52,408 nucleotides of DNA from NCBI GenBank assembly GCA_030589895.1, contig JAUUZQ010000012.1, positions 1-52,408 of the forward strand, written 5' to 3'. This DNA is from Bacteroidales bacterium (lineage in GTDB: Bacteria; Bacteroidota; Bacteroidia; Bacteroidales; GCA-2748055). Shown here one piece after another: positions 1 through 21,938 of this stretch. Position 1 is the first letter of the stretch; the number at the start of each line of letters is the position of its first letter. Below the pieces are notes generated by a model. That model saw nothing but the letters and a program-made list of their open reading frames with translations, did no database searches and was not told the DNA's origin. The position numbers were made by a program, and so were the translations under genes.

Positions 1-1455
1 AATCCTGGTATAGGAAATGCCCAGATTCGTCCCCTGTACAAACGAAATCATTCTGTCAATAAATTACTTAACGAAGTAGTCTCTTCACCAAATTTCAAAA
101 CTGCAGGATTTGCATTTTATGCCATTGACATGAAATCCGGGGAGCTTATTGCATCCGTGAACCCTCACCTGGCTCTTCGCCCGGCATCCACGTTAAAATT
201 GTTAACTACCGCTACTGCATTGGAACTTTATGGTCCGGACCACAGATTTGAGACCAAGCTGCTGTATACCGAAAGAATGAACCCGGCAGGGAACAAGGAA
301 ATTGAGAATATTATTATCAAGGGAGGAGGGGATCCCAGCCTTGGCTCCAGGTACTTCAAAAAAAATACAGGTAAAAACTTTATTGATGAATGGTCTGAAG
401 CAATAAAAATGCTTGCGATTGATTCACTTCATGGACAAATCATTGGAGATGCCAGCGTTTTTAGTTATGACATGGTTCCTCCTTCTTGGTCCTGGATGAA
501 CATGGGACAATACTATGGGGCAGGACCCTGTGGCTTAAGTATATATGACAATTTTTATACTCTCTATTTCAATACTTCTGATTCTGTGGGAGCGCTTGCT
601 CAAATCGTTGAAGTATATCCTGAGCTCTCTCTGAATTTTGACAATACTGTTACATCTGATTCCATTACCTGGGATAATTCTTATATCTATGGTGCACCTT
701 ATAGCTATGAACGCACAATTCGGGGTAGCTTACCGCTAAACCGCAAGAGGTTTGGTATTAAGGGGTCAATGCCCGACCCGGCATATACAGCAACTGTTCA
801 ACTGGATTCTATAGTGAAGTCTCTGTTAGTGGTAACGGCAGGACCTCCAACCACCATGCGCCTCCTGAAAAAGGAAGATCCTGATTTATCCCGGGATGGA
901 GTTGTTTTTCACACAAGCTATTCTCCTGCTCTGTTCGATATTATTAAAGAAACAAACACTGAAAGTGTAAATCTTTTTGCAGAGCACTGCCTGATTCATT
1001 CAGGCATCAAGCTTGGTGCTGCTCCTGAAACCACTATCGCTGCCGATTCTTTAATTTCTTTTTGGAAGAAGAAAGGAATGGACACGCAGGGAATTGCTAT
1101 GTATGATGGCAGTGGTCTGTCGCAGTACAATGCCATCACTCCTTATCAAATGGTATGGCTTCTGCGATACATGAAACAACAAAGTCCATACCATGAAGAA
1201 TTCTACAACTCCATGGCAGTTGCAGGAAATAGCGGGACCCTGGAATCTTTGTTCAAGAAAAGTGTTGCAGAAGGACAACTGCGGGCAAAAAGTGGAACCA
1301 TCAACCATGTAAAAGCATACGCCGGTTATGTCAAATCCATATCAGGACGGGATATAGCATTTTCCATGGCAGTCAACGGTTTCAGTGGCACGTCTCGCGA
1401 AGCAAGAGCAAAGCTTGAACAACTGATGATTGCATTGGCAGAATTTAATAAATAA
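1..1455 (+). CDS. dacB: D-alanyl-D-alanine carboxypeptidase/endopeptidase, PBP4 (S13) family, 5'-truncated by window edge
   Basis: The frame is open from base 1, so the true start lies outside the window; 484 codons are visible. PBP4-type enzymes trim or cleave D-Ala-D-Ala and D-Ala-mDAP peptide bonds of periplasmic peptidoglycan. The three penicillin-binding motifs appear in order. SxxK is in RPASTLK (Ser at about visible residue 63). SxN is in ESVNLFAEH. KTG is represented by KSGT in RAKSGTINHVKAYAGY. The long insert between SxxK and SxN is typical of the S13 family. The signal peptide is not visible. A structured, T-rich element follows the stop. Family assignment is firm; the choice between carboxypeptidase and endopeptidase activity is not decided by sequence. 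Confidence 0.9.
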   Translation, partial: NPGIGNAQIRPLYKRNHSVNKLLNEVVSSPNFKTAGFAFYAIDMKSGELIASVNPHLALRPASTLKLLTTATALELYGPDHRFETKLLYTERMNPAGNKEIENIIIKGGGDPSLGSRYFKKNTGKNFIDEWSEAIKMLAIDSLHGQIIGDASVFSYDMVPPSWSWMNMGQYYGAGPCGLSIYDNFYTLYFNTSDSVGALAQIVEVYPELSLNFDNTVTSDSITWDNSYIYGAPYSYERTIRGSLPLNRKRFGIKGSMPDPAYTATVQLDSIVKSLLVVTAGPPTTMRLLKKEDPDLSRDGVVFHTSYSPALFDIIKETNTESVNLFAEHCLIHSGIKLGAAPETTIAADSLISFWKKKGMDTQGIAMYDGSGLSQYNAITPYQMVWLLRYMKQQSPYHEEFYNSMAVAGNSGTLESLFKKSVAEGQLRAKSGTINHVKAYAGYVKSISGRDIAFSMAVNGFSGTSREARAKLEQLMIALAEFNK

Positions 1456-1530
1456 AAAAACCGGGTGAAACCCTCGTGCACTACTGTTCACAACAGTCTA
1501 TTATCATAAGGTAAGGATTCCTCGGTTTTT
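1456..1530 (+). terminator. Possible structured terminator or small RNA element after dacB
   Basis: AAAAACCGGG (1456-1465) can pair with CTCGGTTTTT (1521-1530) as a 10-bp stem with one G-T wobble. It encloses a perfect inner hairpin, ACTGTT-CAC-AACAGT (1483-1497). The 3' arm ends in five T residues, as a rho-independent terminator would, but the enclosed loop of about 55 nt is unusually large. It could be a terminator or a structured leader or RNA before the next gene. I do not recognise a known RNA family. Confidence 0.3.
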
Positions 1531-1600
1531 GAAATTAATTATATAAATTTGTCGACTTATTTTCTATTGAAATACAAGTGTATAACTCAATTTTATTCTG

Positions 1601-3550: not shown

Positions 3551-3764
3551 TTTCAGTCTTCCTGCATACCTTCTGACAATTCCTCTACTCAATACAGCCT
3601 ACTCATAAATCATATACCAGATATTAAAAATGAGGTCGGATCGTGATTCCAATAAACTGTAATTTCATGTACGAAATACAGAATATGAAAATTTGTATGA
3701 TATCTTTTTTTAAGGGATTTAGCATTGGAATCATTTGTTTTACAGCATTTTTCCAATATGGATT

Positions 3765-3794
3765 TTTGTTTTTTTCAAATTTGTATTACCTTTG
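3765..3794 (+). promoter_or_regulatory. Bacteroidetes-type promoter upstream of the 3832 gene
   Basis: TTTG (3765-3768) is followed by an 18-nt spacer and TACCTTTG (3787-3794). This matches the Bacteroidetes primary sigma consensus TTTG/TAnnTTTG. The -7 box ends 37 nt before the ATG at 3832, giving a short leader. The element is seen in sequence; its activity is inferred. Confidence 0.6.
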
Positions 3795-3831
3795 GTTTAA
3801 CTATATTCATTATTAATTAAAATTATAGACT

Positions 3832-4878
3832 ATGAAAAGATTTACTACTATTTTTATTCTTGCTCTTATGACCATGGGACTTTCTGCTCAAACATGGAGT
3901 GATTTGTTTACTGAAGATTTTGATGATGGAGCAGCAGATGTACGCTGGACCGTTGTAGATGATGCAGGACCAAACTCTTCCGATTTTGCTTATGATTATA
4001 TTGCAGGCGGAATTGCTGCAGCTCCTGGTGGAGGTGGATTAGGTCTTAAGTTTGAAGCAAACCTTGGTGAAGGTGATCCCCTTGTTGGTGTTGGTAGTTC
4101 AATTTATGCTTTCCCTCTTGGCCAGTCATTTACTGGTGAGTACAAAGTTTCATTTGATTTATATATGAGTTTTGAAGGGGAGACAGGATCAACAGAATTT
4201 GGTCTGTTTGGTGTAATGCATACTGATGAGGTCCTTCCAAGTGCAAATGGAATTGACTATGCTGTTACGTGTGACAATGGTTCTGCCAGAGATATCAGGG
4301 TTTATGAAGATGGTGTTGAATTATCAGCTTTAGATTTTGAAGGTGGTTATCTGTTAGACGGCGATGGTATACCAACGCAAAATAATAATACAGAGGATCC
4401 TTATAATGTTTTACTTGGCACCGACAACCCTGGAAATCAGTGGTTAAGCGTTAGTATCGAAGTTAAGGCAGATAGTGTTCTCTGGTTGGTAAACGGTTAT
4501 GTTTGGTCTGCAATTGAAAAAACACCAGTAGATGGTAACATAGCTATAGCATATGCTGACTGGTTTTCTTCATTATCAGAATCATTTAATTTTGCGATTT
4601 ATGACAATGTAAAAGTTCAAAAAGACATTACAGGAATTGAAGAAATGAGTATTAGTAAAATTTCATTGTACCCAAATCCTGTGTCAGATTTACTTAATGT
4701 TGTTGTTAAAGAGCGTTCAACTCTTGAACTTATCAATTCTATCGGACAAACTGTATACAGAAGTACAGTTGAAGGAACATCAACAGTTGAGCTTTCTGAT
4801 GTGAAATCAGGAATCTATTTTGCAAAAATCACTTCTGAAAGTGGCAAAGTAGAAGTTCAGAAAATTATGGTGAAGTAA
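3832..4878 (+). CDS. Secreted protein of unknown function with T9SS sorting domain
   Basis: This 348-residue protein has a clear signal peptide (residues 1-20, ending LSAQ). A central region of about 240 residues, rich in Gly, Asp and aromatics, resembles beta-sandwich (concanavalin-like) surface proteins; phrases such as EDFDDGAADVRW and YKVSFDLYMSF fit that fold. A type A T9SS domain starts near SLYPNPVSDLLNVVV and ends GIYFAKITSESGK, so secretion or cell-surface anchoring is likely. No catalytic motif is recognisable. It stands alone, between its own promoter and a strong terminator. A carbohydrate-binding or adhesive role is possible but is only inference from the general fold impression. 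Confidence 0.75.
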   Translation: MKRFTTIFILALMTMGLSAQTWSDLFTEDFDDGAADVRWTVVDDAGPNSSDFAYDYIAGGIAAAPGGGGLGLKFEANLGEGDPLVGVGSSIYAFPLGQSFTGEYKVSFDLYMSFEGETGSTEFGLFGVMHTDEVLPSANGIDYAVTCDNGSARDIRVYEDGVELSALDFEGGYLLDGDGIPTQNNNTEDPYNVLLGTDNPGNQWLSVSIEVKADSVLWLVNGYVWSAIEKTPVDGNIAIAYADWFSSLSESFNFAIYDNVKVQKDITGIEEMSISKISLYPNPVSDLLNVVVKERSTLELINSIGQTVYRSTVEGTSTVELSDVKSGIYFAKITSESGKVEVQKIMVK

Positions 4879-4901
4879 GAAAATCAGATATTGATTATAA
4901 T

Positions 4902-4931
4902 AAAAAAGGCGGGAAAATTCCCGCCTTTTTT
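4902..4931 (+). terminator. Bidirectional rho-independent terminator
   Basis: AAAAAAGGCGGG pairs perfectly with CCCGCCTTTTTT across a 6-nt loop (AAAATT). It lies between two convergent genes (stops at 4878 and 4950). It has A-runs upstream and T-runs downstream, so it can end transcripts from both sides. Confidence 0.9.
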
Positions 4932-4949
4932 ATTGCAAAAAATTTTCTT

Positions 4950-6005
4950 TTATATTACTGCTGCCTCCAATAATTCCAGCCTGCACTTATCTGCATCAAA
5001 TGCTGCCCGGATTCCTGTAGGAATTGTTATCATTCTACTTATATGTCCAAATGAGAGGCCATAAGCAACTGGTATCCCCAGCGGTTTCAAAAGATCGTCA
5101 AGTGCCGTCTTCAGGGAGAGTCGTGGTTCATCATTAATGTTGCAATCACCCATTGCTCCCATGACAATTCCTGCCGCCTCCTTCATGTTGGTGCCTGACA
5201 AGAGATGAAATACCATTTTATCAACACGGTAGGTCTTCTCTTCTATATCTTCAAGATAAACAAGCTTATCCTTAAAATCAGGTTCAAACCTGCTGCCGAT
5301 CATAGAATCCAATACACTGATATTCCCTCCTGTAAGAATACCTTCAGCCAAACCTCCTGTAATGGTATAACGATCAAATTCCGGATTATCCTTCGTCTTC
5401 TTTTCACGCCTATAAGGATAGCTGTAAGTGGTTTTCGGATCCATTAGCACCTTTTCAATTGACTTAATACTGAACTTGCTAAAACTGGATATCCCCACCG
5501 GTCCGTGGAAAGTAACCAATCCGGTCTCTTCATAAATAGCCGTAATAATTGCTGTGATATCACTGTATCCGATAAAAACCTTTGGGTTTTTTCTGATTAA
5601 GTCATAATCAAGTAGTTCCAGTATTCTGATTGATCCATATCCTCCCCTGACACACCAGATACCATCAATATCCTTCCTGGTAAACATTTCCATCAGTTCA
5701 TCAGCACGCTCCTGATCCCTGCCGGCAAAATATCCATATTCCGACAAAACTGACTCATTGTAAGTAGTTCTGAAACCAAGCGCTTGTAGTTTATTTACCG
5801 CGCCTTCAAGCTGCTCTTTAGAAACGGAGCTGCCTGGAGTAACCAGGCCAATCAGGTCTCCCTTTTTTAGCTTTTTTGGAAGGATCCTGGGTTGCGTTTC
5901 TCCGGAATCATACTCCCATTGCATCCCTTTTGCAATCCCTGGTGAGACAACAGTAAGCGCAGCTATAATTCCCGATCTCTTTAGAAAATCTCTCCTTGAA
6001 TTCAT
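4950..6005 (-). CDS. Exported S66-family L,D-carboxypeptidase (LdcA/YkfA-like)
   Basis: S66 enzymes remove the terminal D-Ala from murein tetrapeptides at the L-mDAP-D-Ala bond. The expected Ser-Glu-His triad is visible: S148 in FIGYSDIT, E252 in VYLEDIEE and H321 in LSFGHISR. The family glycine-rich segment GGLAEGILTGGN (217-228) is also present. At 351 residues it is the usual length plus an export signal. The N-terminus has a near-perfect twin-arginine motif (SRRDFLKR, residues 3-10) followed by a hydrophobic stretch, which predicts folded export to the periplasm. E. coli LdcA and Bacillus YkfA act in the cytoplasm. It is the last gene of the operon with the NlpC/P60 protein, epimerase, SusC and SusD, 68 nt after susD. 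The enzyme class is sure; murein peptides as substrate follow from family and context. Confidence 0.88.
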   Translation of the reverse strand: MNSRRDFLKRSGIIAALTVVSPGIAKGMQWEYDSGETQPRILPKKLKKGDLIGLVTPGSSVSKEQLEGAVNKLQALGFRTTYNESVLSEYGYFAGRDQERADELMEMFTRKDIDGIWCVRGGYGSIRILELLDYDLIRKNPKVFIGYSDITAIITAIYEETGLVTFHGPVGISSFSKFSIKSIEKVLMDPKTTYSYPYRREKKTKDNPEFDRYTITGGLAEGILTGGNISVLDSMIGSRFEPDFKDKLVYLEDIEEKTYRVDKMVFHLLSGTNMKEAAGIVMGAMGDCNINDEPRLSLKTALDDLLKPLGIPVAYGLSFGHISRMITIPTGIRAAFDADKCRLELLEAAVI

Positions 6006-6073
6006 CTATCTACATTTTTCAAACCTTGAACCAGAGCCATGCTTAAACCCATACTCTAACTCAATCTGGCACT

Positions 6074-7513
6074 TTAGTTTACTCCAGTCCTGGTATCCCA
6101 CCAAACCTGGTATCCCCAATAGTTATCAACTTCAGTCACATCACCCGGAATATTTTCTGAGTTCAGGTTTTGCTCACTGGTTGGGTAAGGGAACCTGAAA
6201 GGTGTCCTGTTGTGTCCTGTAAGATTCGAATCACTGGCTGGAGGAAGTGCGGGTATATCTGTCCTTCTCATCTCAGCCCATGCTTCCCAGCTTTGTCTGA
6301 ACAATGCAATCCATTTTTGAATATATATCCGATCAAGATCATCGTTCCATACTACCTGGGGTTCCAATAGATAAGTACCAATAAGAGCAGGTTCAATCCC
6401 ATACTCCTCACAAGATGCGGTGATCCCAGCCTCATAAGCAGCTTCTGCATCAGCCATAACAAAACCACGGGCTGCAGCTTCAGCTTTAATAAACTCTATT
6501 TCGGCATATTTCATGAAATATACCGACCCGGCAGGGTTGTTTACGAATAATGCTCCTACATTCGAATTGGCATTTTTTGATGAATATTTTTGCCCTACCT
6601 CAAGGCCAATATATTCTCCTGTTGTTATGGTATCAGCATATATGGGTAACCTCGGGTCGTTATAGTCAATAAGAATATCTGCAATTGGCTTTGCAATTTT
6701 ATCATCACCAATTGAACTATGTCTTGCAGTCCATGGTTCAAACCACTCCCCTTCACCCGGATATGCAATATATGCATTGTCCTCATTACTCTCAAAAACC
6801 GGATAGGTATCCGGGTCGTTGAGTATCTTTGAAATTACTGCTGTTGCTGTTGAAGGGTCAACATTGGAAATCCTTATGGCCATACGTAAATGGAGTGAAT
6901 TACAGAATTTTCTCCATTTTACAATATCGCCGGCATAGAGCAAGTCACCATCCGGAACGAATCCACTTGCAGCTCCTCCTGAAAAAATTTCATTTGCATC
7001 CTCCAGTTGAAGCATCAAATCTTCATATATTACTTTCTCATCATCATACGCCGGATGAATCACTCCGTCAGTCAGTTTCCCGGCATCAAAATACGGAGCC
7101 TTCCCGTGCGCATCAACCACCATCTGCATCGCATAGGATTTCATTACTATCATTACTGCCTCCAGTATTTGATTTTCTTGTTCTCGTGCCGTTTCAATTA
7201 CAAAATTTGCATTTGTAAGCGTATAAACATAAGTTCCTGACCAAATAGAAGTTGGTACACTACCCCGATAATTGGTAACATCAGTATAACTTCCTTTTGT
7301 AACATGGCCAACAAAAGCTGCGGGATATTCCATCTCAGTAGTCCCAAATCTGGATGACAAACCCTGTATAACATATGCCATCACATTTTCCGCCGGTGCA
7401 TTAGGCGGATTATTAGGATTGGTATTGATCTCCTCAAAGTTTCCGGTACAGGAAAACATAAAGAGGATTGTCAGGCTTATGGCCGTAATTTTCATTTTAT
7501 TTATTGTCTTCAT
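6074..7513 (-). CDS. SusD/RagB-family outer-membrane lipoprotein (SusD-like_2 type), probable murein-peptide binder
   Basis: This is a surface lipoprotein that caps the adjacent SusC channel and binds its cargo. I place the start at ATG 7513, not the upstream in-frame codon at 7540, because AAAGGAGG sits 7 nt before it. The resulting N-terminus has a signal peptide ending FMFSC, with lipid Cys at residue 22. Acidic residues (NFEE) follow soon after, as in Bacteroidetes surface-export signals. Features of the SusD-like_2 subgroup are NTNPNNPP near the start, the TPR-like helical body, and a C-terminus with FRFPYPTSEQNLN. The 5' end lies just beyond the susC stop. The cargo is not shown by the sequence. 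Its neighbours are all murein-peptide enzymes, so I infer murein peptides rather than a glycan. Confidence 0.87.
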   Translation of the reverse strand: MKTINKMKITAISLTILFMFSCTGNFEEINTNPNNPPNAPAENVMAYVIQGLSSRFGTTEMEYPAAFVGHVTKGSYTDVTNYRGSVPTSIWSGTYVYTLTNANFVIETAREQENQILEAVMIVMKSYAMQMVVDAHGKAPYFDAGKLTDGVIHPAYDDEKVIYEDLMLQLEDANEIFSGGAASGFVPDGDLLYAGDIVKWRKFCNSLHLRMAIRISNVDPSTATAVISKILNDPDTYPVFESNEDNAYIAYPGEGEWFEPWTARHSSIGDDKIAKPIADILIDYNDPRLPIYADTITTGEYIGLEVGQKYSSKNANSNVGALFVNNPAGSVYFMKYAEIEFIKAEAAARGFVMADAEAAYEAGITASCEEYGIEPALIGTYLLEPQVVWNDDLDRIYIQKWIALFRQSWEAWAEMRRTDIPALPPASDSNLTGHNRTPFRFPYPTSEQNLNSENIPGDVTEVDNYWGYQVWWDTRTGVN

Positions 7514-7520
7514 GATCATT

Positions 7521-7528
7521 CCTCCTTT
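7521..7528 (-). promoter_or_regulatory. Strong Shine-Dalgarno sequence that sets the susD start
   Basis: On the minus strand AAAGGAGG lies 7 nt before ATG 7513 and overlaps the end of susC. Such a full Shine-Dalgarno match is uncommon in Bacteroidetes. It favours the internal start and suggests strong translation of the lipoprotein relative to its channel partner. Confidence 0.6.
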
Positions 7529-10500
7529 AAAATTTAACATTTAGCTTAACCCCAAGCGTCCTGGTGGGTGGCAGTTGATACGTCTCCAATCCTGTTCCGC
7601 CCAAAGTACCCCCGGTTGATACCTCCGGATCAATATGAACATCGTTGCTCTCATGTGTGTAAAGCAAGGCAAGATTTCTTCCAAAGAACGACAAAGAAGC
7701 ATTTTGAATACCCAGCTTACTTACCAAAGAATGTGGCAAATTACAGTTCAGGACCACCTCACGCAGTTTAATAAAACTACCGTCAATGATTGACAATTCA
7801 CTCCAGGACCTCGAATCCGCCCAGTAACGATATGGGTCAACAGCTGTCACGTTAGCTTGTCCGCTCACATCTTCTTTGGTTCCGTCTCCATCAAGATCCA
7901 AAGAAGTCCCTTCATCGTAAACTCCAGGAACAATCAATCCGGTTTCACGAACACCTCCCTCAACTGTCGATTGTAATATTCCTGTCTTTTGGCCAACTGC
8001 TTTTGTATAACTGAAAACATCTCCGCCTTTCCTGAAATCAATCAGCACGGATAATGATATACCCTTGTATGAAAAGCTATTTCTTACTCCTCCTATCCAA
8101 TCAGGATTCACATATCCCAGTACTTCAGGATCAGCTGATTCATAAGGCATTCCCTTATTATTTACAAGAATATCACCATTTTCATTTTTTGCAAAAGTAG
8201 TCCCATAAATCGCTCCCCACTCCTGCTCTGGAAATGCCATCAAGGTATTTCCATACATGCCAAAGGTGCCTATCTGAAGCTCATTCATGCCATCTGCCAA
8301 TTCCATTATCATGTTATTGTTTTTCGACCAGTTCAGGTTAACATTCCAACCGAAATCTCCTGCTTCAATAATAGATCCGTAGGCTTCTAATTCAACTCCA
8401 TAATTGCGAATACTCCCGGCATTCTTCAACCATGCAGAATATCCGGTAGACGAGGCTATATCAACTCGCAACAATTGGTTTTTTGTTGTTGCATCATAAT
8501 AAGTGACATCAAAGCCTAACCTGTTTCCAAAAAACTTGAATTCTCCTCCGGTTTCATAACTATAAGTCATTTCAGGCTTTAAATCCGGAGATGACATAAT
8601 CGTTGCTCCTCTGAACATATCAACACCATTAAAGGGTGTTCCATAAGGGCTAAAATATCCGGAAGTTTGATATGGACCAACATTATCGTCTCCGACCACG
8701 GCGTATCCGGCCCTTAACTTACCATAAGTAAATATGTCAGATTTGATCTTCAATGCGTCCGTAAATATAAATCCAAGGTTTGCTGAAGGATATGTGTACC
8801 TCCCGTTTTCTATTGGAAGTACAGAACTCCAATCGGTGCGCAGTGTTAAATCGAGAAAAAGGTATTTCTTAAAACCAAAATTTGCAGAACCAAACACGCT
8901 ATTAGTCACTCTCCTATACTTAGAAAAATCTACATAATAGTCGCCTGCATAATTAGATGTAGAGAAGAAATCCGGAACGACAAGGTCAAAACCATGTGTA
9001 GTGGCATACTGATCATATGATTGGCGGTAATTTCCTCCAAATGTTGCAAACAGTGATATGTCATCTGTTAAATTCCTGTCGACCTTCAACATCAGGTCTG
9101 CATTGCTTTCACTTTCAAGTCGCATCTGCTGCCATAAATTACCATTGGCAGCATTTTCATACATGTCTGTCCAATCACGTGAATACTGATGATAAATATA
9201 TCTTCTGCTCTCATTAAAAAAATCTGTACCAACTCTTGCTACAATATCTACCCCCTGAAACAAGTTATAGGTAATTGCTACATTCCCAAAAACCCTGTCT
9301 CTTTCGCGTGACATAGTGTTCTTATATGCATTCCAGTATGGATTCGGATGCTGGGAAGCATATCCCATCATCCAGTTGTATGCCATGGGCTCTCCTTCAT
9401 ACATAATGATATCATTATAATGCTCCTTCATATGTTCAAGGTTTACCTGTCTGCCAAACCATGAATTAAATTCCAAAAGTGGATTCCTCATTGAATTTCC
9501 CATCTGAGGAAGATTATCATTATTCAGGTTGGTGTAATTAATATTCACATCCAGCTTTAATTTTTCTGATAATTTCATTGATGAGTTAAGCCCCAGGTTT
9601 ATTTTTTCCTGATCAGTATTTGGAGAAACTCCCTTTTGCTTTGTATAGCCTATAGAAAATCTTCCGCTTGATCTTTCAGTCTGATTTGTCATGGAAATAT
9701 TATTTACAGAAGATAAGCCTGTTTCATAAAAATTCCTCACATTGTCAGGACGGGAGATCCAGGGTGTGGCAGTCGGATTCCCATCAACATCCAGTGGAGA
9801 ATCAAATTGCGGTACCATTAATCCTACATCAAGCCGCGAACCCCAGCTCTCATCAGCCCCTGCATGTTTTCCTGTGCCATCAGTGGCCCAACGATATCCC
9901 CTCATATCATGATATTCCTGGTAGGTCAGATCGGGACGATTCAAATTTGTTTTAAAGCTTTCATACGAAAACTCACTACCATCAAATCCCTGTCCGTACT
10001 CATTCTGGTAATTCGGCAAAATATAAACTTCATCAAACCCAATCGAGGATGAAAATTGAATTCCCAGTCCTTTTTGTGAACTTCCTTTCTTGGTCGTAAT
10101 CAAGACCACGCCATTTGCACCACGACTTCCATAAAGGGCAGTAGCACTGGCTCCTTTCAAAACCGAAACACTTTCAATATTCGAAGGGTCAATGTCCATG
10201 GCAGCATTACCGAAGTCTGTATAAGTTGTAGAGCTACGGGCTGAAGACGTACTGTTCATTATAGGTGTTCCGTCAACCACAAACAGTGGTGATGAAGCTC
10301 CTCCAAATGATTTGTTACCACGGATTTTAATTGTGGTTGAAGCTCCTAGCTGTCCGGATGAAGTAGTAATCTGGGCTCCCGCAATCCTTCCTGAAAGGGC
10401 AGAAATAAAATTCTGGGGGTCGGATTGAGACATTTCATCCCCACTAACTTCCTGTACCGCATATCCCAGGGATTTCTTTTCCCGTTTAATACCCAGGGCA

Positions 10501-10817
10501 GTCACCACCACCTCCTCCAGCTCTTCAGTATCCACATTCAATATGATGTTAATTTCTGTCCGGTCTCCAACAACAATTCGTTGTGTTTCATAACCAATAT
10601 AACTGACCACTAACACATCTGTTTCACTCAAAACAGAAATTGAATAGTGCCCGTTTACATCAGTAATTGTACCAGTCATTGTTCCTTCTGTACTCACGGT
10701 AGCTCCTGGTAACGATTCTCCGTTAGCACCGTCAGTAACAGTACCTGAAATCGTTATCTGTGAAAACAACTGCAGTTGAAACAAGAGCAGTGTTGCAATC
10801 AGTGTAAAATGCTTCAT
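7527..10817 (-). CDS. SusC/RagA-family TonB-dependent outer-membrane transporter, probable murein-peptide importer
   Basis: This 1096-residue protein has the usual SusC length. In order it shows a signal peptide (1-20, ending LFSQ), a CarboxypepD_reg-like domain (ISGTVTDGANGESLPGATV), the family motif around ELEEVVVTALGIKREK, a plug domain (FISALSGRIAGAQI, KIRGNKSFGGA, LFVVDGTPI, LYGSRGANGVVLITTKKG) and a long beta-barrel ending in LGVKLNVKF with a terminal aromatic. It starts 13 nt after the epimerase gene and is followed directly by susD, the standard SusCD order. SusC proteins import bulky oligomers with energy from TonB. Because the other three operon genes act on stem peptides of peptidoglycan, I infer murein peptides or muropeptides as cargo; the sequence itself does not prove it. 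Confidence 0.9.
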   Translation of the reverse strand: MKHFTLIATLLLFQLQLFSQITISGTVTDGANGESLPGATVSTEGTMTGTITDVNGHYSISVLSETDVLVVSYIGYETQRIVVGDRTEINIILNVDTEELEEVVVTALGIKREKKSLGYAVQEVSGDEMSQSDPQNFISALSGRIAGAQITTSSGQLGASTTIKIRGNKSFGGASSPLFVVDGTPIMNSTSSARSSTTYTDFGNAAMDIDPSNIESVSVLKGASATALYGSRGANGVVLITTKKGSSQKGLGIQFSSSIGFDEVYILPNYQNEYGQGFDGSEFSYESFKTNLNRPDLTYQEYHDMRGYRWATDGTGKHAGADESWGSRLDVGLMVPQFDSPLDVDGNPTATPWISRPDNVRNFYETGLSSVNNISMTNQTERSSGRFSIGYTKQKGVSPNTDQEKINLGLNSSMKLSEKLKLDVNINYTNLNNDNLPQMGNSMRNPLLEFNSWFGRQVNLEHMKEHYNDIIMYEGEPMAYNWMMGYASQHPNPYWNAYKNTMSRERDRVFGNVAITYNLFQGVDIVARVGTDFFNESRRYIYHQYSRDWTDMYENAANGNLWQQMRLESESNADLMLKVDRNLTDDISLFATFGGNYRQSYDQYATTHGFDLVVPDFFSTSNYAGDYYVDFSKYRRVTNSVFGSANFGFKKYLFLDLTLRTDWSSVLPIENGRYTYPSANLGFIFTDALKIKSDIFTYGKLRAGYAVVGDDNVGPYQTSGYFSPYGTPFNGVDMFRGATIMSSPDLKPEMTYSYETGGEFKFFGNRLGFDVTYYDATTKNQLLRVDIASSTGYSAWLKNAGSIRNYGVELEAYGSIIEAGDFGWNVNLNWSKNNNMIMELADGMNELQIGTFGMYGNTLMAFPEQEWGAIYGTTFAKNENGDILVNNKGMPYESADPEVLGYVNPDWIGGVRNSFSYKGISLSVLIDFRKGGDVFSYTKAVGQKTGILQSTVEGGVRETGLIVPGVYDEGTSLDLDGDGTKEDVSGQANVTAVDPYRYWADSRSWSELSIIDGSFIKLREVVLNCNLPHSLVSKLGIQNASLSFFGRNLALLYTHESNDVHIDPEVSTGGTLGGTGLETYQLPPTRTLGVKLNVKF

Positions 10818-10830
10818 AGTCGTTATAGTT

Positions 10831-11967
10831 TTAGGTGTTAATTTTTTTAATTCCTATTCCGGGCCAGGTATTTAGTGTCACCTTGCCATCCACAACTTTC
10901 ACTCCTTCAAATATATCATTGTCGATTAACAGGTTCCCATCCAGATCAGCCCAATCTACCAGGGGAGAGAGCTGGGAAGCAGCTGATACCGCGCATGAAG
11001 TCTCAGTCATGCAGCCGATCATCACTTTCATATCAAGTGCCCTGGCTACTGTGATCATTTTATGCGCCTCCCGCAAGCCTGTACTCTTCATTAGTTTGAT
11101 GTTGATTCCTGAATAGATTCCTTTAAAAGAAGCTATGTCATCAAGCCGCTGAAAAGCTTCATCAGCAATGATGGGTAAGGGACTGTTTTCCGTAAGCCAG
11201 GCAATGTCATCAACAGCAGTCTTGTGCAATGGTTGTTCAATAAACACAATACCCTGCTCTTTCAGCCAGTGAATCATGTCCAGTGCCTCGTGCTTGTCCT
11301 TCCATCCCTGATTCACATCAATATAGATAGGTACATCTGTTACCGATCGTACCGTATTGATCATCTCCTTATCATTGCCTCCTCCAAGCTTAACTTTCAG
11401 CACCTTAAATCTGCTCGCTTCTTCAGTTTTTATTTTTACCACCTCCGGGGTATCGATTCCGATAGTAAATGATGTCTCGGGAGTATTTTGCGGATTGATG
11501 CCCCATAACTTATAGAGCGGCTGATCAAGCAGTTTTCCAATAAGATCATGCAATGCAATATCGATACATGCCTTAGCTGCCCTGTTGCCTTCATCAAGAG
11601 AATCCACATATGATAGAATATCATCAAGCATGAAGGGATCTTTGAACTGTCCAAGATCCACTTTCTGAAGGAATCTAATCACAGATTCCTGCGATTCACC
11701 CAGGTAAGGAGGCATTGAGGCTTCTCCATAAGCAATGATGCCTTCATATTCTATCTCAGTCAGAATCACCGGAGTGGTATTCCTGGAATGGCCTGCAACG
11801 GTAAATGTGTGACTCAATTGCAAATCATATGGCCTGAAGCTTAATTTCATCTTTCCGTTTCCTGTTATTGCCGGGGCTTTATTGCTATTACATGATATAA
11901 CAGGTATTACTGCCGCTGCAGAAACTGCTCCAACACTCTTTATAAATGTTCTTCTTCCAAAACTCAT
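10831..11967 (-). CDS. Exported dipeptide epimerase (L-Ala-D/L-Glu epimerase, YkfB-like; enolase superfamily)
   Basis: This enzyme epimerises L-Ala-D-Glu from murein to L-Ala-L-Glu. It has the muconate-lactonising subgroup signature. KxK is at K191/K193 (LKVKLGG). The metal ligands are D217 (YIDVNQG), E244 (FIEQPL) and D269 (IIADEA). The second catalytic Lys is K291 (INIKLMKS). D341-L-D343 (WADLDGN) matches the DxD motif that holds the dipeptide amino group in Ala-Glu epimerases. Unusually, the N-terminus has a twin-arginine motif (FGRRTFIKS) followed by a lipobox-like PVISC with Cys at residue 26. It therefore looks like a Tat-exported lipoprotein, whereas YkfB and E. coli YcjG lack such a leader. 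The gap to the NlpC/P60 gene upstream is 8 nt. The dipeptide class is well supported; exact dipeptide preference is not. Confidence 0.9.
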   Translation of the reverse strand: MSFGRRTFIKSVGAVSAAAVIPVISCNSNKAPAITGNGKMKLSFRPYDLQLSHTFTVAGHSRNTTPVILTEIEYEGIIAYGEASMPPYLGESQESVIRFLQKVDLGQFKDPFMLDDILSYVDSLDEGNRAAKACIDIALHDLIGKLLDQPLYKLWGINPQNTPETSFTIGIDTPEVVKIKTEEASRFKVLKVKLGGGNDKEMINTVRSVTDVPIYIDVNQGWKDKHEALDMIHWLKEQGIVFIEQPLHKTAVDDIAWLTENSPLPIIADEAFQRLDDIASFKGIYSGINIKLMKSTGLREAHKMITVARALDMKVMIGCMTETSCAVSAASQLSPLVDWADLDGNLLIDNDIFEGVKVVDGKVTLNTWPGIGIKKINT

Positions 11968-11975
11968 TGGCTAAA

Positions 11976-13178
11976 CTATATTATTTCTTTATAAAACTTA
12001 TTCTCACGTATAGGATGATATCCTTCATCCTCAATACCAATAATCCTCATCGCCCTGATAAACCTCTTCGGGTATGCGGGTATAAAATTCTCCCGCGCAG
12101 GGTCCATGCTGTTAATCCTGACCCTTTTTGATGCGTGGATAAACTCAGAGTCACCAATATATATAGCAACATGCGTTACTTTCTCCGATTGAGTTTCATT
12201 TGCCCGCCTTCCAAAAAACAAAAGATCGCCCACTTCCAGCTCATCATATTCATATTCTGAAGTTATCGGTTTACCACAATAAACTTGTTGGCTTGCGTCA
12301 CGCATCAACTGTAGCCCGTTCATAAAATAGACCATAGAAGAAAACCCACTACAATCTATCGCCTTAGATGATGTCCCCCCCCAAAGATAGGGAACACCCT
12401 TAAACTTCAGGGCAGTTTCAATCAATGCTCCCTGTTCCGGGATCCTGTCTAAAACCTCATCCAGATCGATCACTTCAGCTCTTTTCACCCAGGCTAATCT
12501 CCCATCCGGATACTCAACCTGGTAAAAACCATCCTGAACAAGACGAACATTGAGTATACATCCAATCACCAGATCTGATATTGGCACAGACATGTCATTA
12601 GGATCAGAATATGAAAAGCCATATTGCTTGTTATAGATAACCTTCTTTGCGTCTTTAAGCTGCTTCAGTTTTTCCGGATCAATAGACTCTATAGCTCCGT
12701 CATCAATCCATCCCAGGTAAAGATTTGGGGTCTGCACCAGGTACCAGTCCTCTTTCTTTTTGAGTATTCTAACAGGAGTCCCAAGCAGCGACTGTGAAAC
12801 AATATCAGCCATATGGCGAGGTTCTGATCGCATATAAGCAACTGAATTATTAATCAAACCATTTACGATTTGTCCTACACCTTCCCCGGGAAGTAATATC
12901 AATGTATTTATTACACCGCTGAATTGCTCATCTATTGCTTTTGAAATGATCAGAAAAGCATCTTCATTTGCTATTTCACCACTTAATTCAATAATACTAT
13001 TCTCCTCAGATACAGACAATTTCCACAATTCAATACGGGTATCCGGTGCTAAATTTGTTTTCAGTGAATCGAGTAGGATGTTAATCTCTGATATAATCCT
13101 TTCATTTTTTGACGTACATGATACCGATAACAAGGTGACAAGCAGAATTGCCAGAGTAATGTGCTGTAATTTTCTCAT
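11976..13178 (-). CDS. NlpC/P60 lipoprotein, gamma-D-glutamyl-L-diamino acid endopeptidase (YkfC-like)
   Basis: This 400-residue protein is predicted to cut the D-iGlu to mDAP bond of murein stem peptides, releasing L-Ala-D-Glu for the epimerase encoded next. A signal peptide ends LLSVSC with lipid Cys at residue 21. The residues after it (TSKNER) lack the acidic surface-export pattern, so a periplasm-facing location is more likely. The C-terminal NlpC/P60 domain (about 250-370) has the triad C276 (AIDCSGF), H336 (THVAIYIG) and H348 (EFIHAS). Two SH3b-like domains precede it, at about 110-165 (SVAYMRSEP, YLVQTP, LGWID) and 180-235 (FYQVEYPDGRLAWV). Residues 30-100 form an extra domain I do not recognise. 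It is the first gene of the five-gene operon, behind a consensus promoter. Confidence 0.88.
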   Translation of the reverse strand: MRKLQHITLAILLVTLLSVSCTSKNERIISEINILLDSLKTNLAPDTRIELWKLSVSEENSIIELSGEIANEDAFLIISKAIDEQFSGVINTLILLPGEGVGQIVNGLINNSVAYMRSEPRHMADIVSQSLLGTPVRILKKKEDWYLVQTPNLYLGWIDDGAIESIDPEKLKQLKDAKKVIYNKQYGFSYSDPNDMSVPISDLVIGCILNVRLVQDGFYQVEYPDGRLAWVKRAEVIDLDEVLDRIPEQGALIETALKFKGVPYLWGGTSSKAIDCSGFSSMVYFMNGLQLMRDASQQVYCGKPITSEYEYDELEVGDLLFFGRRANETQSEKVTHVAIYIGDSEFIHASKRVRINSMDPARENFIPAYPKRFIRAMRIIGIEDEGYHPIRENKFYKEII

Positions 13179-13224: not shown

Positions 13225-13255
13225 CAAATGTATAATAAATTATTTGTATGACAAA
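13225..13255 (-). promoter_or_regulatory. Consensus Bacteroidetes promoter of the murein-peptide operon
   Basis: Reading the minus strand, TTTG (13255-13252) is followed by exactly 19 nt and TACATTTG (13232-13225). This is an exact match to TTTG-N19-TAnnTTTG. The -7 box lies 46 nt before the NlpC/P60 start codon. The five downstream genes have gaps of at most 68 nt and no internal terminator, so one transcript to 4950 is likely. Confidence 0.72.
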
Positions 13256-13372: not shown

Positions 13373-15688
13373 TTAATTTTCAATATTTTGTAAAAAAGAA
13401 CTCTTCTCCTCAATAATAACATTTTTTCCTTTCAACATTATTTCTAAGCGTGGTCCCTTTTCATTCTCAATTACCACTTTTGAGCCGTTGATATGAATTC
13501 TGATTTCGTTCTTCCTGAAAACAATCCTGAATGAAAGAGATTTCCACTGATCCGGAAGATGTGGATTAAGATGAATCATATCATCTTTTACACGAAAACC
13601 GCCAAATCCGTAAACCACCGACATCCAGGTACCTCCCATGCTTGTAATATGTAAACCCTCTTTAACTTCATGGTTATAATCATCTATGTCAAGCCGTGAA
13701 GTTCTCAGGTAAAGCTCATATGCCTTCTTATCATATCCCAGTCTGTTGGCCAGAATCGAATGAACACAAGGAGACAATGATGATTCATGTAAGGTCCGGG
13801 GTTCATAAAAATCATAATTTGCTTTTATGGTTTCAAGGTCATAGTCTTCTTCAAAAAAATAGATTCCCTGGAGAACATCAGCTTGCTTGATATAACAAGA
13901 ACGCAGAATACGATCCCACGACCAATGTTGATTTATAGGTGATTCTGATGGATCCAGATCTGAAGCAAACCTTTGTTCTTTATCAAGGTATCCATCCTGT
14001 TGTAAGAAGATATTCTTCTCTTCAGAATGAGGGAAGCACATATTCTCAACAATATCACTCCAGTTGTCTATCTCTTTCTTTTCATTAAAATTGTTCCTGG
14101 AAAGAATCTCCTTAAATCTGAAAGCATCATTATTTTTTGCATACTCCAAAGACTCCATGGTGTATTTCAGGGTCCATTGAGCCATCAGGTTGGTATACCA
14201 GTTGTTATTTACATTGTTCTCATATTCATTGGGCCCTGTAACGCCCAAAATAACATATTTACCCTTTACATCAGACCAATTCACCCGTTGCTTCCAAAAC
14301 CTGGAAATAGCAATTAATACATCCAGACCATAATCCAACAAATAATCCTTGTTTCCGGTATACCTTATATAATTGTAAATAGCATATGCTATAGCGCCAT
14401 TCCTGTGAATCTCTTCAAAAGTTATTTCCCATTCATTATGACACTCCTGTCCGTCCATTGTAACCATAGGATAAAGCGCAGCTCCATCTTTAAATCCTAA
14501 TTTTTCAGCATTTTCAATGGCTCTTTGCAAGTGTTTATGGCGATAAATAAGTAAATTTCGAGCTACATCTTCATTTGCAGTACTGAGATAGAAAGAAACG
14601 AGGTAAGCTTCTGTATCCCAATAAGTACTACCCCCATATTTTTCGCCTGTGAATCCTTTTGGCCCGATATTCAATCGCTCATCTCTTCCTGAATAAGTCT
14701 GGTTCAGGTGAAAAATATTAAACCGGATTCCCTGTTGAGCCAGGGGATCACCATCAATAATGATATCTGAACGAGACCAGTTCTCCTCCCAATGCTCCTG
14801 GTGATTTTTAAATAATGTATCAAATTTTAAATTAAATGCGCGCTCAAGAGATTTTTTGCCTGATTCAAGCAAGTCCTTTTCCGGATAGTTCATAGAAGAA
14901 ACAACAGAAACATATTTATAGATTATGACCTCCTTGCCCTTTAGAACTCTGCCCTTTACCTTATTCCCAACAAATCCCTGATTATGAATTAACTCCACGG
15001 GCCAATCGCTCTGCTCTCCATCAATACTTACTTCATATTTCATCGCAAATGAAGCGGAAAATTCCGATTTTCTTGTTTTAGAGATAAGAAAGGCACTTCC
15101 TTCTTTTGCTCCGGAGTCAATCACATCCCAAAAATGCTCATCATAATTCGAATCCATGTTTTTTACATTTCCATCGATATATGGAGTGAAAGCAATTTCA
15201 GCATCAAAATTTATAGGTTTTACACTATAACTTATAGCGCCAATCTCATCATCTGCAATACTTAAAAACCTCATCACATTTACCTCAAGCATCTTCCCCT
15301 CTTCACAGCTAACTGTAAACGATCTCGAAAGGAATCCATGCTTCATATTCAATTCTCTTCTGAAACTATGTAATGTACAAGTATGTAAATCCAGTTTATG
15401 ACCATCAATTTCCACACAAATACCAATCCAGTTAGGCGAGTTCAATACCTTGGCAAAAAATTCAGGATATCCATTCTTCCACCAACCAACCCTGGTTTTA
15501 TCGGGATAATAAATACCGGCAATATAACTACCCTGTAGAGAAGCTCCTGAATAGGCTTCTTCAAAATTAGCCCTCTGACCCATTCTGCCATTCCCCAGAC
15601 TAAAAATACTTTCAGAAGCCTCTTGCATTTCAGGGTGAAAAGCCTCCTCAATTACACTCCATTCATTAACTTTATAATGATTATTCAT
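13373..15688 (-). CDS. GH65 glycoside phosphorylase, probable maltose phosphorylase
   Basis: GH65 phosphorylases split an alpha-glucoside with phosphate; maltose phosphorylase yields beta-glucose 1-phosphate and glucose in the cytoplasm. I start at ATG 15688 because AAAGGAG lies 6 nt before it; the frame stays open upstream inside the transporter gene. The 771-residue product has no signal peptide. Family marks include an N-terminal beta-sandwich (IFSLGNGRMGQR), the (alpha/alpha)6 segment GFTGEKYGGSTYWDTEA, and HNEWEITFEEIHRNGAIAYA, where E421 is the expected catalytic acid. The last stretch closely resembles known maltose phosphorylases, but kojibiose or trehalose specificity is not excluded. 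It lies 13 nt after the MFS transporter gene. No beta-phosphoglucomutase, the usual partner, is seen in the window. Confidence 0.87.
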   Translation of the reverse strand: MNNHYKVNEWSVIEEAFHPEMQEASESIFSLGNGRMGQRANFEEAYSGASLQGSYIAGIYYPDKTRVGWWKNGYPEFFAKVLNSPNWIGICVEIDGHKLDLHTCTLHSFRRELNMKHGFLSRSFTVSCEEGKMLEVNVMRFLSIADDEIGAISYSVKPINFDAEIAFTPYIDGNVKNMDSNYDEHFWDVIDSGAKEGSAFLISKTRKSEFSASFAMKYEVSIDGEQSDWPVELIHNQGFVGNKVKGRVLKGKEVIIYKYVSVVSSMNYPEKDLLESGKKSLERAFNLKFDTLFKNHQEHWEENWSRSDIIIDGDPLAQQGIRFNIFHLNQTYSGRDERLNIGPKGFTGEKYGGSTYWDTEAYLVSFYLSTANEDVARNLLIYRHKHLQRAIENAEKLGFKDGAALYPMVTMDGQECHNEWEITFEEIHRNGAIAYAIYNYIRYTGNKDYLLDYGLDVLIAISRFWKQRVNWSDVKGKYVILGVTGPNEYENNVNNNWYTNLMAQWTLKYTMESLEYAKNNDAFRFKEILSRNNFNEKKEIDNWSDIVENMCFPHSEEKNIFLQQDGYLDKEQRFASDLDPSESPINQHWSWDRILRSCYIKQADVLQGIYFFEEDYDLETIKANYDFYEPRTLHESSLSPCVHSILANRLGYDKKAYELYLRTSRLDIDDYNHEVKEGLHITSMGGTWMSVVYGFGGFRVKDDMIHLNPHLPDQWKSLSFRIVFRKNEIRIHINGSKVVIENEKGPRLEIMLKGKNVIIEEKSSFLQNIEN

Positions 15689-15694
15689 CTTTTT

Positions 15695-15701
15695 CTCCTT
15701 T
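15695..15701 (-). promoter_or_regulatory. Shine-Dalgarno sequence setting the GH65 start
   Basis: On the minus strand AAAGGAG follows directly after the TAG stop of the transporter gene and lies 6 nt before ATG 15688. This decides between the internal start and the longer upstream reading frame, and suggests coupled translation of the two genes. Confidence 0.55.
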
Positions 15702-17249: not shown

Positions 17250-17449
17250 AATTACATTTTCTTTACTTAAAGATTCAAATAATCCCTTCTAAAATATATA
17301 GATACTTAACGAGCCCGGTAAGAGATCATTTATTAAAATAATTAAGGGAAATTTTCAGATATAAATAAAAAAATCCCTGACCATAAAAATTATGATATCA
17401 GAGATCTAAATACAATGAAACTTGTCGGACGAAACTTTTAATTCCGTTT

Positions 17450-17482
17450 CAAAAATACTACAAAAAACATGTATAAAGCAAA
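17450..17482 (-). promoter_or_regulatory. Candidate promoter of the MFS-GH65 unit
   Basis: On the minus strand TTTG (17482-17479) is followed by 21 nt and TATTTTTG (17457-17450). The spacer is slightly longer than the usual 19 nt. The -7 box would lie 200 nt before the MFS start, leaving a long leader. The LacI operator lies 54 bp upstream of the -33 box. Confidence 0.38.
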
Positions 17483-17536
17483 TTTTTGGGAAAGAAAAAA
17501 ACAATCAAAAGACCTGAAATCGCTGTGTACCCTATT

Positions 17537-17548
17537 GCAAACGTTTGC
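17537..17548. promoter_or_regulatory. LacI-type operator 1 (upstream of MFS-GH65)
   Basis: GCAAACGTTTGC is a perfect 12-bp palindrome with the central CG typical of LacI-family operators. It shares CAAACGTTTGCGGAGA with operator 2. It lies 288 bp before the MFS start codon and 63 bp beyond the lacI stop. Binding by the adjacent LacI protein is inferred. Confidence 0.72.
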
Positions 17549-17604
17549 GGAGATAAAAGAAAATTTAATGGATAAAGAGGAAGCCTTTTAATTCTCTCTC
17601 CCTT

Positions 17605-17621
17605 CCGATAGCTATCGGGAC
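17605..17621. repeat. Dispersed palindromic repeat, copy 2 (over the lacI stop codon)
   Basis: CCGATAGCTATCGG (17605-17618) is a perfect 14-bp palindrome, and GATAGCTATCGGGAC (17607-17621) matches copy 1 at 16574 exactly. It contains the TAG stop of the regulator gene. The resulting hairpin could slow decay or help end the lacI transcript; there is no T-run for a classic terminator. Confidence 0.5.
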
Positions 17622-18637: not shown

Positions 18638-18778
18638 TTAGATAAATCTAATCGATAAATATAACAAAAAATAATACTCAGAGACCTCTTTTTCGTTCAA
18701 TTCCACGGGCCTAAAATGTCTGTAAATGAGCAAAATTTGATTTTTCTGTTCAGAAACATACCACTAAAACCCCAATTA

Positions 18779-18788
18779 CAAACGTTTG
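18779..18788. promoter_or_regulatory. LacI-type operator 2 (between lacI and susC)
   Basis: CAAACGTTTG is a perfect palindrome within ACAAACGTTTGCGGAGA and is near-identical to operator 1. It lies in the 326-bp divergent region, 175 bp before the susC start. A weak -7-like AAAATTTG (18891-18898) is the best susC promoter candidate seen; no convincing -33 was found. Elsewhere in this region I see only the short repeat GATATCAGAGATC (18918-18930). Confidence 0.7.
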
Positions 18789-21927: not shown

Positions 21928-21938
21928 ACAGGACAAAC

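What the first reader, a model, noticed from the sequence alone, without database searches (positions are those of the whole stretch)
4950..13178. A SusCD-type importer wired to a complete murein-peptide degradation set
Five minus-strand genes with gaps of at most 68 nt code for an NlpC/P60 gamma-D-Glu-diamino acid endopeptidase, an Ala-Glu epimerase, SusC, SusD and an S66 L,D-carboxypeptidase. The three enzymes match Bacillus YkfC, YkfB and YkfA, and all their key residues are visible. SusCD systems are mostly described for glycans and some for peptides. A SusCD locus dedicated to peptidoglycan stem peptides would be a nutrient-scavenging or wall-recycling system of its own kind. Related clusters may exist in other Bacteroidetes; I cannot check whether this one is described.
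Basis: partly seen in the sequence, partly recalled or inferred. Interest (0 to 1): 0.85.

Follow-up and report, generated by a model that had tools for sequence, protein, structure and literature searches.

The report
Outer-membrane importer for cell-wall peptides
Five adjacent genes in an apparently Bacteroidota genome encode a SusCD outer-membrane transporter pair and three relatives of enzymes that degrade bacterial cell-wall peptides, and together they are predicted to take up short wall peptides and break them down just outside the inner membrane, which would show how such bacteria get these peptides through their outer membrane.

Summary
In detail: NlpC/P60 (YkfC type), epimerase (YkfB type), SusC, SusD and S66 carboxypeptidase genes lie in one direction, gaps -14 to 68 nt. 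For it: the five-gene order recurs in two other genomes; SusCDs from at least six separate SusC groups sit beside NlpC-epimerase genes; between two Labilibaculum strains the two enzymes and three downstream genes are 76-98% identical while the SusCD between them is unrelated; SusC is closest to peptide-binding BT_2264; the genome's closest SusC paralogue lies with an amidase, a MurNAc-kinase relative and MurQ. Correction: all three enzymes carry export motifs, unlike Bacillus subtilis YkfABC, so digestion is likely periplasmic. Against: nine close relatives have NlpC-epimerase-S66 without SusCD between; direct SusCD adjacency is rare in evenly drawn genomes (1 of 26, 2 of 58); SusD homologues near 40% identity lie beside other genes; the fold does not separate peptide from glycan binders; the substrate is unmeasured. 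Prior art: ykfBC adjacency (2010), a murein-related SusCD locus in one symbiont (2023), BT_1314 activity (2025). A new variant of a known kind.

The parts
11976..13178 (-). NlpC/P60 gamma-D-Glu-diamino acid endopeptidase (YkfC subfamily), predicted lipoprotein (LLSVSC); 400 aa with SH3b domains
   Evidence: NLPC_P60 E 1e-21, SH3_3, SH3_16; 3NPF E 4e-62, 3PVQ/4R0K E 1e-57, 3H41 E 5e-22; residues against PMC2954226 (passages). The B. thetaiotaomicron relative BT_1314 cleaves Tri-DAP (PMC12071298, passages)
10831..11967 (-). Dipeptide (L-Ala-D/L-Glu type) epimerase of the enolase superfamily with Tat motif (GRRTFIK) and a possible lipobox (VISC)
   Evidence: MR_MLE_C, MR_MLE_N; 3IJI/3IJL/3IJQ E 8e-156; no NCBIfam equivalog reaches its cut-off: DgcA 202 of 400 bits, L-Ala-D/L-Glu epimerase 148 of 343; Tat motif; TatC in the genome
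7527..10817 (-). SusC/RagA TonB-linked outer-membrane transporter, 1096 aa
   Evidence: TIGR04056 627 bits, cut-off 368; best solved relative BT_2264 chain of 5FQ6, E 1e-122; next 4e-55
6074..7540 (-). SusD-like lipoprotein, 488 aa, overlaps SusC by 14 nt; Cys31 invariant in a 30-row alignment
   Evidence: SusD-like_2 E 7e-95; fold model pLDDT 87, nearest folds BT2259, Fjoh_4561, BT2263
4950..6005 (-). S66 family L,D-carboxypeptidase (LdcA/YkfA/MccF type) with Tat motif (SRRDFLK)
   Evidence: Peptidase_S66 E 3e-42, S66C E 2e-28; TIGR01409 Tat signal 19.6 bits over cut-off 16.7; PRK11253 156 of 378 bits, below cut-off; MccF-like and LdcA structures score alike
13225..13255 (-). Bacteroidetes-type promoter match TTTG-N19-TANNTTTG, ending 46 nt before the NlpC start codon
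   Evidence: 5 matches in the window, 2.17 expected by chance; sequence; consensus recalled
130..1455 (+). PBP4-type D,D-carboxypeptidase/endopeptidase (S13), convergent with the operon; neighbour of S66 in several relatives
   Evidence: TIGR00666 175 bits over 108; next to S66 in L009, L021, L023, L145, L215

Best explanation
Five co-directional genes (NlpC/P60, epimerase, SusC, SusD, S66) form what is likely one operon whose SusCD pair is predicted to import murein stem peptides, or muropeptides carrying them, into the periplasm, where the three enzymes would take them apart. Inferred steps: SusD captures the fragment and SusC, powered by TonB, moves it across the outer membrane; S66 removes the terminal D-Ala of tetrapeptides; NlpC/P60, a lipoprotein of the YkfC subfamily that needs a free N-terminal L-Ala, cuts L-Ala-gamma-D-Glu from meso-diaminopimelate; the Tat-exported epimerase turns L-Ala-D-Glu into L-Ala-L-Glu, an ordinary dipeptide that general transporters or dipeptidases can use. 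Fragments still bound to MurNAc would first need an amidase, and the genome's closest SusC paralogue sits beside an amidase gene (G000:C84). Shown directly: gene order and families, key residues, export motifs, recurrence of the order, replacement of SusCD in the slot. Not shown: the substrate, transport, co-transcription, compartment.
For: Gene set and residues. Same five genes in the same order in L010 (SusC 60%, SusD 58%) and L023 (51%, 51%). SusCD directly beside NlpC-epimerase (or epimerase) on the same strand in 14 of 62 usable named loci, against 38 of 626 for other genes of the same loci (binomial p 2e-5, no correction for kinship; the 14 include three Labilibaculum and two Maribellus). 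SusCs in this place fall in at least six separate groups of an 87-sequence tree. Transporter replaced, enzymes kept: Labilibaculum L040 against L073: NlpC 76%, epimerase 94%, three downstream genes 91-98%, but SusC 26% and SusD no hit; DNA homology stops about 190 nt into susC and resumes at or just after the end of susD; also L021 against L023 and L245 against L254. A Tat-type start on the epimerase goes with an adjacent NlpC: Fisher p 2e-4 (order set), 4e-4 (phylum set), 0.03 (named set). TatC present. SusC nearest to BT_2264, whose complex bound oligopeptide (PMC7782687 passages). Closest own-genome SusC paralogue beside Amidase_3, GHL10, a MurNAc/GlcNAc kinase relative and MurQ. NamZ muramidase relatives within four genes of the epimerase in 16 of 62, and MurQ or kinase relatives in 11 of 62, named loci. 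DAP decarboxylase gene beside the locus in L010, L021 and L023.
Against: Nine close relatives have NlpC-epimerase-S66 with no SusCD between. In evenly drawn genomes direct SusCD adjacency is rare: 1 of 26 (order) and 2 of 58 (phylum). L010 and L023 were found through the epimerase; searches from SusD found no further orthologue. SusD homologues at 39-43% identity with readable context (3 of 7) sit beside SSF, dehydrogenase or formyltransferase genes. In L023, L245 and L254, which have SusCD in the slot, no Tat motif is seen on the epimerase. Upstream neighbours differ between L040 and L073. The SusD model is as close to chitin-binding as to peptide-binding SusDs, and Foldseek puts a chitin-binding one first. 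No NCBIfam equivalog for the epimerase or S66 reaches its cut-off, and S66 also includes MccF-type enzymes. Free tri- and tetrapeptides may be small enough for porins (general knowledge). Tat and lipobox calls rest on motifs.
Confidence: 0.62

Rival explanations
1. SusCD imports ordinary oligopeptides or a glycan, and its place beside the murein-peptide enzymes is incidental; the enzymes serve turnover of the cell's own wall.
For: Nine close relatives keep NlpC-epimerase-S66 without SusCD between. SusD homologues near 40% identity lie beside unrelated genes. SusC is nearest to BT_2264, an ordinary-oligopeptide case (PMC7782687 passages). The fold does not discriminate.
Against: SusCD from at least six SusC groups in the same place, and three cases of non-orthologous SusCD beside closely related enzymes, are hard to get by incident.
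Confidence: 0.2
2. The system recaptures the cell's own shed wall fragments (recycling at the outer membrane) rather than scavenging the walls of other bacteria.
For: Periplasmic enzymes would meet both sources; PBP4-type enzymes that can make such fragments are neighbours.
Against: TonB-driven SusCD is typical of environmental nutrients (general knowledge); the Amidase_3-SusCD-GHL10-MurQ locus in the same genome, with a T9SS tail on GHL10, fits foreign wall material better. Sequence cannot separate the two.
Confidence: 0.13
3. The SusCD exchange in the slot reflects diversifying selection on surface proteins (phage or predator pressure) and says nothing about substrate.
For: Sharp borders of the exchanged block in L040 against L073, about 190 nt into susC and near the end of susD, look like recombination between surface-protein genes.
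Against: Even so a SusCD pair is kept in the slot in each compared pair, which implies that import there is useful; the two readings can both hold.
Confidence: 0.05

Closest known systems
Bacillus YkfABC murein-peptide pathway
   Same: The same three activities by homology (S66 LD-carboxypeptidase, Ala-Glu epimerase, gamma-D-Glu-diamino acid endopeptidase) and ykfB-ykfC adjacency; NlpC has the YkfC-subfamily residues.
   Different: In B. subtilis the reactions are placed in the cytosol and the genes lie beside a dipeptide ABC transporter operon; in B. cereus only YkfC has a signal (PMC2954226, passages). Here all three enzymes carry export motifs and the partner is SusCD.
BT2261-64 and RagAB, peptide-type SusCD importers
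   Different: Their structures held oligopeptides (PMC7782687, passages); no murein enzymes are reported beside them in what I read.
Urechidicola symbiont murein-related PUL (PMC10199937)
   Same: SusCD pairs with an L-Ala-D/L-Glu epimerase, a D-Ala-D-Ala carboxypeptidase and an NhaC gene in one locus; [quoted passage not shown]
   Different: That 27-kb locus is sugar-centred (murQ, nagB, ampG, GH3/18/171/10), and neither S66 nor NlpC/P60 is named; its text treats it as glycan degradation. The window locus is peptide-only; the sugar half sits on another contig (G000:C84).
B. thetaiotaomicron BT_1313-BT_1314 pair
   Same: Solved homologues of the epimerase (3IJI) and of NlpC (3PVQ/4R0K) (that these entries are BT_1313 and BT_1314 is recalled); BT_1314 has a predicted signal peptide, is found in extracellular vesicles and cleaves Tri-DAP (PMC12071298, passages).
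   Different: I did not read the BT_1313-1314 neighbourhood; whether SusCD lies beside it was not tested.

Membership tests
YkfC subfamily of NlpC/P60 | Cys-His-His triad, gamma-D-Glu pocket (Tyr226, Trp228, Asp237, Ser239) and the Tyr118-Asp256 pair that reads a free N-terminal L-Ala | tested here: met
   Window Cys276, His336, His348; Tyr264, Trp266, Asp275, Ser277; Tyr154 and Asp294 (residue list from PMC2954226 passages). Position 257 is Ala295, a residue the paper allows.
L-Ala-D/L-Glu epimerase | Enolase-superfamily fold with KxK, Asp-Glu-Asp, Lys and DxD motifs, and dipeptide specificity | tested here: inconclusive
   Motifs present and 3IJI at E 8e-156, but no NCBIfam equivalog reaches its cut-off and activity was not measured; motif roles are recalled.
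Muramoyltetrapeptide L,D-carboxypeptidase (S66) | S66 family with Ser-Glu-His triad | tested here: met
   Pfam S66 and S66C above cut-off; Ser148, Glu252, His321 (triad recalled).
Muramoyltetrapeptide L,D-carboxypeptidase (S66) | Specificity for murein tetrapeptide rather than MccF-type substrates | tested here: inconclusive
   MccF-like 4E5S E 5e-40 and muramoyltetrapeptide carboxypeptidase 6UUK E 1e-38 are close; PRK11253 below its cut-off.
Bacillus subtilis-type YkfABC pathway | Enzymes act in the cytosol after import by an inner-membrane transporter | tested here: not met
   Tat motif on epimerase and S66 (TIGR01409 over cut-off), lipobox on NlpC; predictions only.
SusCD system | SusC/RagA TonB-linked protein followed directly by a SusD-family lipoprotein | tested here: met
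   TIGR04056 627 bits over 368; SusD-like_2 319 bits; 14-nt overlap. Lipid attachment was read from the sequence only.
Peptide-type SusCD (BT2263-64, RagAB) | Binds and imports oligopeptides | not testable with these tools
   Sequence nearest to BT_2264, but the fold ranks chitin-binding and peptide-binding SusDs together.
Murein PUL as in PMC10199937 | SusCD with Ala-Glu epimerase in one locus | tested here: met
   description.
Murein PUL as in PMC10199937 | murQ, ampG and PG glycosidases in the same locus | tested here: not met
   None recognised in the window; MurQ, kinase relative, GHL10 and amidase are on contig C84 of the same genome.

The most novel reading that the evidence does not exclude
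Bacteroidota run murein-peptide catabolism in the periplasm, with a Tat-exported Ala-Glu epimerase and a lipoprotein YkfC, and feed it through an exchangeable SusCD cassette: unrelated outer-membrane receptors are swapped into one slot between fixed enzymes. This would be the first dedicated outer-membrane importer for wall stem peptides, and a modular PUL in which the receptor, not the enzyme set, evolves.
Probability: 0.45. Interest if true: 0.77.

Novelty: new variant of a known kind. Interest (0 to 1): 0.62.

Why it matters
How external wall peptides cross the outer membrane is open: papers on Tannerella forsythia, which depends on foreign MurNAc, name inner-membrane carriers, and my passage searches of three of them found no outer-membrane importer. 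The PUL survey PMC6499787 found peptidoglycan-directed GH families underrepresented in SusCD loci (passages); a peptide-side locus without CAZymes would be easy to miss in such CAZyme-based surveys. If true, it gives a testable gene pair for turnover of D-amino-acid-rich necromass, moves a route placed in the cytosol in B. subtilis into the periplasm, and offers natural receptor swaps with which to map SusD specificity.

Tried and rejected

Limits of the counts. Named, order and phylum sets share some genomes and were not pooled. Order set: 27 of 27 non-own epimerase matches at E<1e-100 fetched. Phylum set: 60 of 69 matches fetched; left out were own, G059 (already in the order set) and the seven weakest. 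SusD matches: 21 of 26 non-own matches read; five not fetched; six of the loci read are short contigs with little context. My ORF picker missed the epimerase of L144, which left that locus out; one search used its second, distant epimerase instead. L268 is counted as Tat but is a false positive on reading. The Tat test is a motif plus hydrophobicity rule. AmpG-like, NamZ, MurQ and kinase labels come from profiles I built from neighbour clusters; one member of each was checked by Pfam, NCBIfam or PDB, and the AmpG-like one is below its family cut-off.


Full report
What is there. The window is contig C5 of a 3.84-Mb, 200-contig genome (88.9% complete) whose nearest named epimerase relatives are Bacteroidales and Bacteroidota MAGs. 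Five minus-strand genes run NlpC/P60 (11976-13178), epimerase (10831-11967), SusC (7527-10817), SusD (6074-7540), S66 (4950-6005), with gaps of 8, 13, -14 and 68 nt. The main family of each is above its Pfam cut-off, and SusC is above the NCBIfam SusC/RagA cut-off. A Bacteroidetes-type promoter match ends 46 nt before the NlpC start codon, in the 194-nt gap to the upstream GH65 gene; the window has 5 such matches where 2.17 are expected by chance, so this is suggestive. Co-transcription is inferred.

Enzymes. NlpC/P60 is closest to the solved 'dipeptidyl-peptidase VI' proteins 3NPF and 3PVQ/4R0K (E 4e-62, 1e-57) and then to Bacillus YkfC 3H41. It carries the triad, the gamma-D-Glu pocket and the Tyr-Asp pair that PMC2954226 (passages) gives as the mark of enzymes needing a free N-terminal L-Ala (positions). 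A homologue in B. thetaiotaomicron, BT_1314, was shown to cleave Tri-DAP, has a predicted signal peptide and is found in extracellular vesicles (PMC12071298, passages). The epimerase matches 3IJI/3IJL/3IJQ at E 8e-156; that this protein is a B. thetaiotaomicron dipeptide epimerase is recalled, as the molecule is named muconate cycloisomerase there, and no NCBIfam equivalog reaches its cut-off. S66 has the Ser, Glu and His of the family (triad recalled), but MccF-type and LdcA-type structures score alike.

Compartment. The epimerase begins MSFGRRTFIK and has a possible lipobox (VISC), S66 begins MNSRRDFLK (Tat model over its cut-off), and NlpC has a lipobox. TatC is in the genome. In evenly drawn genomes a Tat-type start on the epimerase goes with an NlpC gene directly upstream: order set 11 both, 4 Tat only, 0 NlpC only, 11 neither (26 loci, p 2e-4); phylum set 24, 12, 4, 19 (59 loci, p 4e-4; one Tat call, L268, is false on reading); named set 61, 10, 4, 4 (79 loci, p 0.03). 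None of these is corrected for kinship. So in many of these bacteria the Ykf-type route is likely periplasmic. Exceptions matter: L023, L245 and L254 have SusCD in the slot but no Tat motif on the epimerase. PMC2954226 (passages) reports signals on some Bacteroidetes YkfC proteins and none on the two Bacillus YkfB epimerases it discusses. A search for twin-arginine with epimerase, murein peptide, Bacteroidetes and NlpC listed two papers; neither contains the term twin-arginine.

SusCD and its slot. Among the 80 named relatives kept, 62 have enough flank, and SusCD is directly beside NlpC-epimerase (or the epimerase alone) on the same strand in 14 (25 have SusC or SusD within four genes). For other genes of the same loci the direct rate is 38 of 626, p 2e-5 without correction for kinship. 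In evenly drawn sets the direct rate is low: 1 of 26 (order) and 2 of 58 (phylum). The full five-gene order is in the window, L010 and L023 (S66 frame split in L023); L021 has epimerase-SusC-SusD-S66 without NlpC in its 21-kb stretch. L010 and L023 were found through the epimerase, so they are no independent test of the SusCD; searches from SusD found nothing above 43% identity outside the window genome. S66 lies within four genes of the epimerase in 7 of 62, 2 of 26 and 0 of 58 loci, so it is a narrow-lineage part. Other wall genes are near: NamZ relatives within four genes in 16 of 62 named loci, MurQ or kinase relatives in 11 of 62.

Independent recruitment and replacement. In a tree of 87 SusC proteins those directly beside NlpC-epimerase fall in at least six groups: window with L010 and L023; L048 with L254; a clade with L053, L155, L073, L022 and L026 (possibly three groups, weakly resolved); L245; L076, L029, L040 and L078; L036 with L052. 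They are set apart by SusCs from other contexts or from the window genome itself; the place of L021 is poorly supported. Most sequences in the tree were drawn from epimerase loci, so this shows variety, not frequency. The clearest case is Labilibaculum euxinus A4 (L040) against Labilibaculum sp. K2S (L073): NlpC 76%, epimerase 94% and the next three genes after SusD 93, 91 and 98% identical, but SusC 26% and SusD without a hit; genes upstream of NlpC differ. DNA homology ends about 190 nt into susC and resumes at or just after the end of susD. L021 against L023 (epimerase 81%, S66 69%, PBP4 64%, NhaC 79%, SusC 28%, SusD 23-24%) and L254 against L245 (epimerase 82%, NlpC 62%, SusC 26%, SusD no hit) repeat the pattern. 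A slot refilled with different importers while the enzymes stay is the best evidence that the importer serves the enzymes, though diversifying selection on surface proteins could drive the swaps.

Same-genome support. The window SusC's closest own-genome paralogue (C84, 38% over the length) lies with Amidase_3 upstream and SusD, GHL10, a kinase whose solved relatives are named GlcNAc kinase and putative MurNAc kinase, and MurQ downstream. That reads as the sugar half of wall use, with an amidase that could free the peptides a YkfC-type enzyme requires. In L010, L021 and L023 a diaminopimelate decarboxylase gene lies beside the locus (TIGR01048 over its cut-off for L010 and L021), which would turn released DAP into lysine. 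In eight of 58 phylum-set loci an AmpG-like gene (by a profile whose checked member is below the AmpG cut-off) is directly upstream of NlpC-epimerase, which ties the enzyme pair to muropeptides without SusCD.

Against. Nine close relatives (L004-L009, L014, and genomes G007 and G125) have NlpC-epimerase-S66 with no SusCD between (the G125 epimerase). Of seven order-level SusD homologues at 39-43% identity only three contigs (L203, L204, L207) show context, and none has murein-peptide enzymes there. The SusD model (pLDDT 87) is as close to chitin-binding as to peptide-binding SusDs, and Foldseek ranks a chitin-binding one first. Free tri- and tetrapeptides may pass porins, in which case SusCD would be needed for larger or scarce fragments.

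Known and new. The YkfBC pair in Bacteroides and Gramella was noted in 2010 (PMC2954226, passages). [quoted passage not shown] Ten paper searches were run; in their capped listings and the passages I read, I found no paper proposing SusCD import of wall peptides or an exported Ala-Glu epimerase. The library lacks most subscription papers. Verdict: new variant of a known kind; mechanism likely, substrate untested.

Noticed in passing
L171 (G000:C84), 565-12627: Second SusCD locus of the same genome with Amidase_3, GHL10 (T9SS tail), MurNAc/GlcNAc-kinase relative and MurQ: a likely glycan-side murein utilisation locus.
   Followed up: partly
L040 8926-21137 against L073 8933-21090: Clean exchange of a susCD block between two Labilibaculum strains, with borders about 190 nt into susC and near the end of susD.
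   Followed up: partly
L235, L239, L241, L243, L247, L255-L257: AmpG-like gene directly upstream of NlpC-epimerase, an apparent inner-membrane counterpart in genomes where SusCD is not adjacent.
   Followed up: partly
L010 6142-7335, L021 8638-9843, L023 7455-8636: Diaminopimelate decarboxylase gene beside the murein-peptide locus in three relatives.
   Followed up: partly
L004 3696-5177, also L021, L023, L145: NhaC-family transporter gene conserved near S66/PBP4 in relatives; a candidate inner-membrane carrier. NhaC is also named in the Urechidicola locus. The window genome has only a weak match.
   Followed up: partly
window 13373-27861: GH65, MFS, LacI regulator, second SusCD, SusE/F-like protein and T9SS-tailed alpha-amylase: an ordinary-looking alpha-glucan utilisation locus next door.
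   Followed up: partly
window 1601-4878: M1-type aminopeptidase and a second protein, both with T9SS sorting tails, lie between PBP4 and the operon; several relatives have PBP4 directly beside S66.
   Followed up: no
window 11976-13178, residues about 25-105 of NlpC: N-terminal stretch of about 80 residues before the SH3b domains without a Pfam match.
   Followed up: no
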